IMG/VR virus record: IMGVR_UViG_3300021197_001442
Span: 31,020-95,019 of that record
DNA length: 64,000 nt
Strand: one strand, 5' to 3'
From: a virus
Shown here in pieces: positions 60,994-64,000 of this stretch. Made by a program: the position numbers and the translations under genes. The notes under the pieces are model-generated. The model was not told the DNA's origin. It saw only the letters and a program-made list of their open reading frames with translations, and searched no databases. The stretch's first letter is position 1; the number at the start of each line of letters is the position of its first letter.

Positions 60994-62349
60994 TTATAAA
61001 GCCTTGGCCGCGAGTGTGGCAACATTCGATCTCTCACCCTTCTCAAGAGTGATATGACCTGACAGCTTGTATGCTTTAAGCTTCTCAATCGCGTGTGTAA
61101 GGCCAGATGACATTTCATTAACATAAATATTGTCAATTTGTTCAATATCCCCTGTTAATACAATTTTAGTCCCTTCTCCCACTCTTGTTAAAATTGTTTT
61201 AATTTCATGTGCGGTAAGGTTCTGAGCCTCATCAATAACAATGAAAGCATTTGCGATTGAACGCCCTCTTATATAGGTTAGAGCTTCTACCTCGATTAAG
61301 CCACGATGCATATAATCATCTAGGGTTGTTTGATCATCACCAGTCAGAAACTTTAGGTTATCCTGTACAGGTGCAAGCCAAGGTGCCATTTTCTCCTGCA
61401 TAGAGCCAGGTAAAAAGCCTATATCTCTTCCCATGGGCATCACCGGTCTAGACACCACCAGACGCTTGTAAGGGGTCCTACAATAGGTTTCATCCCTAAG
61501 CTTGTCCTTAACCTTCTTATTATTAACAACCTGTTCGAGACCTGCTGCTATAGCCATCAAAGTCTTACCAGAACCTGCCTTACCTATCAGTGAAACGACC
61601 TGTATTTCTGGATCCATTAACAGATCAAGAGCAAACATCTGTTCCTTATTTCGTGCTCTTACACCCCATAGGCCTTCCTTAAACTCAACGACCTTTCCTA
61701 TTGGAGTAGTATAATTGTAGAATCGAGAAAGAGCAGTCTTCTTTTCATTTGAACTAGAGACTAGCATTAAAAATTGGTTTGTATATAAACCTGGATTTTC
61801 TTCTTTATCTATTAAAATTAATTCACCTTCATAGAATTGATCAATTACTTGGTCATCCACTAGACATGTACTTAACCCTGAGTAAAGATCAGACTCATTT
61901 TTTATTACTTGATTCTCTATATAATCTTCTGTAGTAAGTCCTATGGAATCACAAATGACTCTCATATTGATGTCTCTACTTACAAGTATAGTCTTTCTGC
62001 TACCATTAGACTCATCCTCTGATAGAGCTGTAGATATGATTACATGGTCTGCTACAGATCTGTCTAGGTCATAGGGTAACTCATGTGTGGCGTGGTCTGC
62101 AATTTTTAGTATACCCTTACCTTTGCCTAGACGTATACCAGTTTGTAAGCTGCCCTTGGCCCTAAGGTCGTCCAGGGCTCGGATTATTTTTCGAGCGTTG
62201 ACTCCTACGCTGTCTTGACGTTTCTTGTGGTTATCTATTTCTTCCAATACTTTTAGTGGAATTAGAATATCATTGTTTCCATAATTATAGATACATTCTG
62301 AGTCTGTGAGGCAGACGCTGGTGTCGAAGACATATGTTTTTTTAGCCAT
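60994..62349 (-). CDS. PIN-PhoH protein (PhoH2-type), 451 aa
   Basis: An N-terminal PIN nuclease domain (residues 1-145, VFDTSVC with D9, IADHATHEL, SVADHVIISTAL and VSRDINMR with D126) is followed by a PhoH P-loop ATPase (about 225-451): Walker A SLIGKAGSGKT (254-263), Walker B FIVIDEAQ, and the RGRSIANAF and VLTGDIEQID segments typical of PhoH. PhoH2 proteins are sequence-directed RNA helicase-nucleases in bacteria; PhoH is common in large phages, but the PIN fusion is the less usual form. A CACTATTTAWA-like promoter motif lies 24 nt before the ATG. The protein probably cuts or remodels RNA. The tmRNA gene is about 0.9 kb upstream. Confidence 0.9.
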   Translation of the reverse strand: MAKKTYVFDTSVCLTDSECIYNYGNNDILIPLKVLEEIDNHKKRQDSVGVNARKIIRALDDLRAKGSLQTGIRLGKGKGILKIADHATHELPYDLDRSVADHVIISTALSEDESNGSRKTILVSRDINMRVICDSIGLTTEDYIENQVIKNESDLYSGLSTCLVDDQVIDQFYEGELILIDKEENPGLYTNQFLMLVSSSNEKKTALSRFYNYTTPIGKVVEFKEGLWGVRARNKEQMFALDLLMDPEIQVVSLIGKAGSGKTLMAIAAGLEQVVNNKKVKDKLRDETYCRTPYKRLVVSRPVMPMGRDIGFLPGSMQEKMAPWLAPVQDNLKFLTGDDQTTLDDYMHRGLIEVEALTYIRGRSIANAFIVIDEAQNLTAHEIKTILTRVGEGTKIVLTGDIEQIDNIYVNEMSSGLTHAIEKLKAYKLSGHITLEKGERSNVATLAAKAL

Positions 62350-62858: not shown

Positions 62859-63155
62859 TTAACACTTGTCAAAATACTCCGATAAAAGCCTATTTGTATA
62901 ATGATTCTGCTCTATAGCTGTCTTCTTTCTGTGACAGTTAGCACAACGAATTTCACATTTTGCTGCTTCTTCTAATATAGAATCCCATGAGTATTCCTTA
63001 CTTATTAAGGTACTAATATTGTGCTTCTTGTTATTAAGATGATCGAAGTCTAAAACCCTAGGATCAGTTTCCCCACAATCAACACAAGGATTAGTTAAAT
63101 AAAAATCCATCATTTTTCTTTTGATAGACTCTCTTCTTTCAGAACGTTTGCACAT
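62859..63155 (-). CDS. HNH endonuclease, 98 aa
   Basis: A small free-standing HNH nuclease: NPCVDCGETDPRVLDFDH (two zinc cysteines and the His), NKKHNISTLISKEYSWDSIL, and CEIRCANCHRKKT (second Cys pair and the third His). The family nicks or cuts DNA and includes homing endonucleases and packaging factors. ATG 63155 has AAAGGAAG upstream; a TTG at 63212 would add 19 residues. It lies next to the tmRNA gene, outside the head-packaging region, which suits a homing or host-DNA role. Confidence 0.85.
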   Translation of the reverse strand: MCKRSERRESIKRKMMDFYLTNPCVDCGETDPRVLDFDHLNNKKHNISTLISKEYSWDSILEEAAKCEIRCANCHRKKTAIEQNHYTNRLLSEYFDKC

Positions 63156-63226
63156 GGAATAACTTCCTTTTTGCTTAACTTTACCTCCTGAAGACTTTTT
63201 TGTCAAATACAAATACCTTGGCTCTT

Positions 63227-63271: not shown

Positions 63272-63593
63272 TGGAGATGGCGGGAGTCGAACCCGCGTCC
63301 AGAATAAAATTCGTTTCAAGTCATTCACAAGCTTAGGAGATTTTTCTAAATCAACAAAACTTTTCTAACCTTACTGTGGCTAGAAACAGGTTCTTGTTTA
63401 ATTTTTACAACTTGTCTGTTGTTTTGACTAGATTGGATAGAAGGCCCTAGTCAGCCTCCCGATTAAGCCGCTAGACGGATAGAATCGAAATGATTATTGT
63501 TATTGGCAAATATCAAATGGTTTGATTTTTTAAGTCATCATGACTGCTTGCACTATCCTCTTCACTTACCCTGTCGAAACCAAAAACATCCCC
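63272..63593 (-). ncRNA. ssrA: transfer-messenger RNA (tmRNA), one-piece, phage-encoded
   Basis: The 5' end GGGGATGTTTTTGGTTTCGACAGG (63593 downward) and the 3' end GGACGCGGGTTCGACTCCCGCCATCTCCA (to 63272) are hallmark tmRNA sequences. Acceptor stem GGGGATG pairs with CATCTCC (one G-U), a T-arm CGGGTTCGACTCCCG is perfect, and the discriminator base is A. CCA is not encoded after it (TCC follows). Length about 322 nt. tmRNA rescues ribosomes stalled on broken mRNA and tags the product for proteolysis. The tag frame (63507-63463) encodes ANNNNHFDSIRLAA. The region between tag and 3' end has the room for the usual pseudoknots. Promoter unclear. Confidence 0.95.
63463..63507 (-). other. tmRNA tag reading frame, peptide ANNNNHFDSIRLAA
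   Basis: In the tmRNA, GCC (63507) is the probable resume codon, and 14 sense codons then TAA give ANNNNHFDSIRLAA. It starts with Ala-Asn, as many bacterial tags do, and ends with LAA, the hydrophobic C-terminal signal read by ClpXP-type proteases. The four consecutive Asn codons and the HFDSIR middle differ from common bacterial tags. Boundaries are inferred from the LAA-stop and position about 85 nt from the 5' end. Confidence 0.85.
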
Positions 63594-63748: not shown

Positions 63749-64000
63749 TTATATTTTATTTTGTTCTTCTTGAAAGAAAGAATGTATTTGATACTTTCTA
63801 ACTAACATATTAAAATGCTTATGCTTTAAACCTAAAAATCGCATAGCTTCACCTTGTGTCCTAGTAGCAGAAACGGCATATTTCAACACAGCTTCTTGTG
63901 TTATTCTAACTAAATTATCCCATATTGGCAACCCATAAAGTCTATTCTTTACAGGTCTTGTAGATAGTTCTAACTTTAAAGCTATAATATCCTCTAAAGA
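63749..64000 (-). CDS. Fis-like helix-turn-helix protein, 5' end outside window
   Basis: The frame is open to the window's right edge, so the N-terminus is missing. The visible part (about 84 residues) ends in a Fis-type HTH: VLKYAVSATRTQGEAMRFLG, then LKHKHFNMLVRKYQI, the helix-turn-helix pattern of Fis/NtrC C-terminal domains. DNA-binding is therefore likely. It is the gene before the tmRNA in transcription order. A TTG at 63931 is an in-frame start but upstream codons stay open (SLEDIIALKLELSTRPVKNR), so the protein is longer. Confidence 0.75.
   Translation of the reverse strand, partial: SLEDIIALKLELSTRPVKNRLYGLPIWDNLVRITQEAVLKYAVSATRTQGEAMRFLGLKHKHFNMLVRKYQIHSFFQEEQNKI

What the first reader, a model, noticed from the sequence alone, without database searches (positions are those of the whole stretch)
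63272..63593. Phage-encoded one-piece tmRNA with an unusual tag (ANNNNHFDSIRLAA)
Both tmRNA ends, a seven-pair acceptor stem and a perfect T-arm are readable, and a 14-residue tag ends in LAA. Phage tmRNAs are known but rare. The tag has four Asn codons and no encoded CCA. It may let the phage rescue ribosomes and choose the degradation route during infection.
Basis: partly seen in the sequence, partly recalled or inferred. Interest (0 to 1): 0.85.

Follow-up and report, generated by a model that had tools for sequence, protein, structure and literature searches.

The report
Marine phage tmRNA with phage-type tag
A marine T4-like phage carries its own working-looking copy of the bacterial RNA that frees stuck ribosomes; this is a known kind of phage gene, but the destruction tag it writes belongs to a tag family that we found in phages and not in the chromosomes of about 85,000 bacterial and archaeal species.

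Summary
Window 63593-63272 (minus strand) is a one-piece tmRNA: ARAGORN and Rfam RF00023 agree (114.6 bits, E 5e-44), and the tag is ANNNNHFDSIRLAA. The record is a 95-kb IMG/VR virus contig of a T4-like myovirus. The gene is under selection. Across 103 distinct phage one-piece tmRNAs, G3-U70 is kept in 102 and the A at -4 before the resume codon in all 103. Acceptor and PK2 helices show compensatory changes, and within the RLAA tag class pN/pS is 0.10. In relatives the gene usually sits 0.8-6 kb upstream of phoH, but presence and tag class have changed repeatedly. The 14-residue class ANNNNxF[DE]xxRLAA hit 39 viral contigs and no prokaryote genome. A related 13-residue class hit at least 120 viral contigs and two prokaryote genomes, both phage fragments binned with a MAG. 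No smpB was found. It most likely uses host SmpB, AlaRS, CCA-adding enzyme and Clp protease to recycle ribosomes during infection and mark nascent chains. Phage tmRNAs were already known (2.3% of cultured phage genomes), so this is a new member of a known kind. The phage-exclusive tag classes and their turnover are the interesting part. Host and tag fate are unknown.

The parts
63272..63593 (-). one-piece tmRNA (ssrA) gene, 322 nt, CCA not encoded
   Evidence: ARAGORN; RF00023 114.6 bits, E 5.1e-44
63587..63593 (-). 5' strand of acceptor stem GGGGAUG, includes G3 of the G3-U70 alanine identity pair
   Evidence: sequence; G3-U70 in 102 of 103 distinct phage one-piece tmRNAs, pairs 5 and 6 strongly covarying
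63273..63279 (-). 3' strand of acceptor stem CAUCUCC; 63272 is the A73 discriminator
   Evidence: sequence and comparison
63280..63296 (-). T-arm GCGGG-UUCGACU-CCCGC
   Evidence: 12/12 relatives keep all five pairs, two of them with compensatory changes
63523..63545 (-). pseudoknot PK1 (AGUC/GACU with UGAU/AUCA)
   Evidence: read from sequence; partly kept in relatives
63508..63512 (-). resume signal just before the tag, UAUUU, with U at -5 and A at -4
   Evidence: A at -4 in 103/103, U at -5 in 97/103 phage tmRNAs
63463..63507 (-). tag reading frame ANNNNHFDSIRLAA plus UAA stop
   Evidence: codon-level constraint in its class pN/pS 0.10
63426..63458 (-). pseudoknot PK2 (GAGGC/GCCUU with GACUAG/CUAGUC)
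   Evidence: 100% of cells paired in 12 sequences, six pairs with changes on both sides
63362..63391 (-). pseudoknot PK3 candidate (ACCU/AGGU with UUUCUA/UAGAAA); the region of PK4 is shortened, 49 model positions empty
   Evidence: read from sequence and CM alignment; not testable on this alignment, which is poor there
62859..63212 (-). HNH endonuclease gene, next gene downstream of the tmRNA; context, not shown to be part of the function
   Evidence: phrog_2255 E 1.9e-23
60994..62349 (-). phoH-like gene; syntenic landmark downstream of the tmRNA in relatives
   Evidence: phrog_2765 E 2.4e-110; synteny
63749..64000 (-). end of the gene upstream of the tmRNA (runs off the contig); a homologue lies at the same place in the close relative L006

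Best explanation
The feature is a functional phage ssrA gene. Inferred mechanism: during infection the RNA is processed and given CCA by host enzymes, charged with alanine by host AlaRS through G3-U70, bound by host SmpB and EF-Tu, and enters ribosomes stalled on broken mRNAs. Translation resumes on GCC and adds ANNNNHFDSIRLAA to the nascent chain, which frees the ribosome for phage protein synthesis and leaves a chain ending in LAA for a ClpXP-type protease. Shown here: the RNA's anatomy, conservation, constraint on structure and tag, and phage ownership of the tag class. Inferred: expression, charging, tagging, tag fate, and benefit to the phage.
For: RF00023 hit and ARAGORN call. No second tmRNA and no smpB on the contig, and no smpB in 14 relatives, so host SmpB is needed. 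Identity and resume elements kept in 102-103 of 103 phage tmRNAs. Compensatory changes in the acceptor, PK2 and T-arm. Tag codons vary silently while the peptide stays, pN/pS 0.10 in 17 distinct RLAA tags and 0.25 in 64 ALAA tags. Upstream-of-phoH position kept in relatives down to 38% PhoH identity. Tag class in 39 viral contigs and 0 genomes.
Against: No expression or tagging data. The host is unknown, so host tag and tmRNA cannot be compared. The gene is absent from 13 of 33 relatives with enough upstream sequence, so it is dispensable. RNAfold z-score is only -1.77, though pseudoknots are invisible to that method. PK3 and PK4 of this copy are short or unverified.
Confidence: 0.85

Rival explanations
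1. The phage tmRNA is mainly a tag-swapping device: the phage peptide replaces the host tag so that rescued chains escape a host adaptor, are degraded with different kinetics, or are fed to a phage-encoded ClpP-like protease.
For: Tag classes are phage-exclusive in the collections searched. Tag class changed at least 5 times on the PhoH tree, even between window and its sister L006 with 95% identical PhoH. 10 of 15 contigs of the group carry PF00574 ClpP-like proteins, some 0.4-3.8 kb from the tmRNA.
Against: LAA is kept, so ClpX recognition is probably kept. The ClpP-like proteins next to phoH score best against a head maturation protease model, below its cut-off (103 against 120 bits). They also occur beside phoH where the tmRNA is absent. 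No ClpX-type C-terminal domain was found in 15 contigs. The window contig itself has no PF00574 protein.
Confidence: 0.3
2. The RNA acts as a decoy that titrates host SmpB and damps host trans-translation, as proposed for the TLD-only RNA of mycobacteriophage DS6A (PMC4131195).
For: It has a complete tRNA-like domain and the phage brings no SmpB.
Against: A decoy needs no open, conserved tag frame or resume signal, yet both are under constraint.
Confidence: 0.06
3. It is a decaying host gene picked up by chance or an integration-site remnant.
For: tmRNA genes are common integration sites (general knowledge); CCA is missing in this copy.
Against: Full length, no integrase found among the proteins profiled, and purifying selection on structure and tag across the group. 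CCA is also missing in 29 of 103 phage tmRNAs, and such genes rely on CCA addition.
Confidence: 0.04

Closest known systems
Bacterial one-piece tmRNA, Rfam RF00023
   Same: full-length covariance match, G3-U70, T-arm, resume signal, tag ending LAA, PK2
   Different: phage-borne; tag 14 residues with an Asn run and FDSIR before LAA, against mostly 8-14 residue tags such as ANDYALAA in 30 Bdellovibrionota-phylum genomes examined; PK4 region shortened
One-piece tmRNAs of mycobacteriophages (Bxz1, Cali, Wildcat and others) and Bacillus phage G (PMC4131195)
   Same: lytic-phage tmRNA without smpB reported
   Different: different phage lineages and hosts; tag sequences of those phages were not compared here
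Two-piece tmRNA of OM43 phage Melnitz and pelagimyophages (PMC9004378)
   Same: marine myovirus, single ssrA in the phage, proposed maintenance or degradation role
   Different: Melnitz RNA is permuted two-piece and reported under a glutamine riboswitch; the window RNA is one-piece and has no riboswitch hit. That survey found only 2.5% of one-piece phage tmRNAs to be marine

Membership tests
tmRNA (RF00023) | covariance-model match above the gathering score over the full model | tested here: met
   114.6 bits against 47, model 1-374
tmRNA (RF00023) | tRNA-like domain with G3-U70 and T-arm | tested here: met
   sequence; conserved 102/103
tmRNA (RF00023) | tag reading frame at the resume position, ending in a stop, preceded by A at -4 | tested here: met
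tmRNA (RF00023) | pseudoknots PK1-PK4 | tested here: inconclusive
   PK2 strongly supported, PK1 partly, PK3 only by complementarity, PK4 region shortened
tmRNA (RF00023) | alanylation and tagging with SmpB | not testable with these tools
   needs biochemistry
phage-encoded tmRNA | gene lies in a virus genome, not in host DNA | tested here: met
   virus record with T4-like head, packaging and tail genes; same place in many viral relatives
two-piece (permuted) tmRNA | permuted order of the two pieces | tested here: not met
   ARAGORN calls the standard type and RF00023 aligns end to end
phage ClpP partner system | tmRNA and a ClpP that degrades its tagged products | tested here: inconclusive
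   ClpP-like proteins in 10/15 contigs but best match is head maturation protease for those near phoH; none on this contig

The most novel reading that the evidence does not exclude
A widespread marine T4-like phage group uses its own tmRNA to write phage-specific degradation tags (ANNNNxF[DE]SxRLAA and ANDNVEFDYALAA-like) that differ from host tags and turn over quickly, steering rescued proteins away from host adaptors or towards a phage-encoded Clp-type protease.
Probability: 0.2. Interest if true: 0.75.

Novelty: new member of a known kind. Interest (0 to 1): 0.42.

Why it matters
It shows that one-piece tmRNAs are common in a marine T4-like group where earlier surveys saw almost none, and gives more than 100 distinct sequences. 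The tag classes look phage-exclusive, so one can test whether phages rewrite the host's protein quality-control signal rather than just topping up ribosome rescue. They might also serve as markers for phage fragments in MAG bins: both genome hits were such fragments.

Tried and rejected
Host identification: cultured-phage similarity is too distant (TerL 45% to Flavobacterium phage immuto, 44% to Microcystis phage Mel-JY01); immuto and RM378 have no tmRNA and Mel-JY01 only a 17-base match below the cut-off. Binning with WOR-3 (TerL 69%) is a scaffold of short contigs joined by N runs, and no close TerL was found in the other WOR-3 genomes sampled. The Halobacteriovorax bin is likewise only binning.

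A TATAAAT late-promoter-like box 14 nt upstream of the gene looked attractive, but only 4 of 103 phage tmRNAs have one within 80 nt, against about 2% of random 80-mers, so I dropped it.

ClpP as dedicated partner: considered, not accepted.

Cassette swap of the tmRNA between window and L006: rejected, since tmRNA identity (78%) is close to that of the flanks (81-87%).

Plasmid search found nothing. One search call was malformed and returned an error.

Full report
Observation. ARAGORN finds one tmRNA in the window, 63272-63593, minus strand, tag ANNNNHFDSIRLAA. Rfam RF00023 matches end to end with 114.6 bits against a gathering score of 47, E 5.1e-44. This is far beyond chance.

Owner. The window is bases 31020-95019 of a 95,019-base IMG/VR virus record with no second tmRNA. 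The contig encodes T4-like terminase, portal, prohead protease, major head protein, tail sheath, baseplate parts, primase and PhoH, plus a run of sugar-nucleotide and glycosyltransferase genes. Closest cultured phages by terminase are Flavobacterium phage immuto (45%) and Microcystis phage Mel-JY01 (44%). Neither immuto nor Rhodothermus phage RM378 has a tmRNA, and Mel-JY01 only a 17-base sub-threshold match. The host is not known.

Conservation. PhoH relatives from viral contigs carry a tmRNA on the same strand upstream of phoH: 20 of 33 loci with at least 7 kb upstream sequence, at distances of 0.8 to 6.3 kb. Even a phage contig with 38% PhoH identity keeps the order. Among 103 distinct one-piece phage tmRNAs collected here, G3-U70 is kept in 102, A at -4 in 103, U at -5 in 97. 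Acceptor pairs 5 and 6 switch among GC, AU, CG and UA while staying paired. On a 12-sequence alignment both PK2 stems and the T-stem are 100% paired, and eight of their pairs carry changes on both sides. The covariation score (0.280) exceeds all 500 shuffles (mean 0.152) and all slid versions. PK3 and PK4 could not be verified on that alignment.

Tag. Within the 14-residue RLAA class, 17 distinct codings give pN 0.047 and pS 0.474 (ratio 0.10); within the 13-residue ALAA class, 64 codings give 0.25. The peptide is therefore the selected product. Part of the tag overlaps paired RNA, so silent sites are not wholly free and the ratio is if anything conservative.

Phage exclusivity. The pattern A-N-N-N-N-x-F-[DE]-x-x-R-L-A-A, back-translated, hits 39 viral contigs and none of 84,980 prokaryote species genomes. 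By base counting I estimate about 0.004 chance hits in the genome collection (my arithmetic, equal base frequencies). ARAGORN confirms a tmRNA in 33 of the 39; the other six loci were not called, and in at least three of them the match lies within about 200 bases of the end of the stored DNA. One is a 101,404-base contig in a Halobacteriovorax MAG that IMG/VR itself lists as a virus. The same MAG has a tmRNA on a 1.4-Mb contig with tag ANNDFAPAMAA. The other lies in a WOR-3 'chromosome' built from contigs joined by 100-N runs, next to a phage-type ClpP-like gene; that assembly also holds a terminase 69% identical to this phage's. Limits: contigs under 3 kb are not held, exact patterns miss variants, and the true host may lack a genome.

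Turnover. On a PhoH tree the presence of the tmRNA changes at least 7 times and the tag class at least 5 times. The sister of the window, L006, with 95% identical PhoH, has ANNNNYELALAA. Its tmRNA is 78% identical in DNA, close to the flanks at 81-87%, so the tag changed along with ordinary divergence rather than by swapping the gene.

Partners. No SmpB in G000 or 14 relatives. PF00574 proteins occur in 10 of 15 contigs, with conserved MSAG- and MIH-like motifs in most. A subset sits between tmRNA and phoH, but those score best against a ClpP-related head maturation protease model, below its cut-off, and also occur where the tmRNA is missing. No ClpX-type C-terminal domain was found. A dedicated phage Clp route is therefore possible but not supported.

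Mechanism. The simplest reading is supplementary ribosome rescue with host SmpB, AlaRS, EF-Tu, CCA-adding enzyme and protease, useful when mRNAs are cut during infection. That the tag stays under selection means tagging, not only ribosome release, matters. Whether the phage tag reroutes the chain is open.

Known work. Phage tmRNAs are known in Bacillus phage G and mycobacteriophages (PMC4131195). They occurred in 402 of 18,146 phage genomes, with only 2.5% of one-piece ones from marine phages (PMC9004378). The present gene is a new member of that kind, from a marine-rich group not represented in those lists as far as I could see. That the group is marine rests on the nature of the source metagenomes as I know them from their IMG numbers, not on a tool result. 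I could not compare with the tmRNA Website tags.

Noticed in passing
L002:4922-5278 (MZ593728.1 39.4-39.8 kb): Acinetobacter phage BUCT628 (Obolenskvirus) carries a permuted tmRNA, tag ANDNVFGAKTLAA, 123.9 bits to tmRNA_permuted, in a stretch with no annotated feature.
   Followed up: partly
L292 and L291 (CP070664.1, WOR-3 bin77): A GTDB representative 'chromosome' is contigs joined by 100-N runs and contains phage fragments: a second, phage-type tmRNA and a terminase 69% identical to this phage's.
   Followed up: partly
L124, L247, L249 (Halobacteriovorax MAG PBIO01): One MAG holds three tmRNAs over the Rfam cut-off; the one on the 1.4-Mb contig has tag ANNDFAPAMAA, one is on a contig that IMG/VR lists as virus, one on a 47-kb contig.
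   Followed up: partly
window:41651-59223: A run of sugar genes: nucleotide-sugar epimerases, a cytidylyltransferase-cupin fusion, a GT29 sialyltransferase-like protein, DegT aminotransferase, a transketolase N-terminal-like protein and glycosyltransferases.
   Followed up: no
LR756508.1 92434-92880 and 414804-414915: A 484-kb uncultured phage record has one full tmRNA hit (72 bits) and one short hit over the cut-off (58 bits).
   Followed up: no
window:62859-63212: HNH endonuclease gene 60 nt downstream of the tmRNA; in relative L006 a metallophosphoesterase-like gene lies between the two.
   Followed up: no
L307, L308, L196 and others: ClpP-like protease genes just upstream of phoH in many relatives, best match ClpP-related head maturation protease although this phage's contig has a T4-type prohead protease.
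   Followed up: partly
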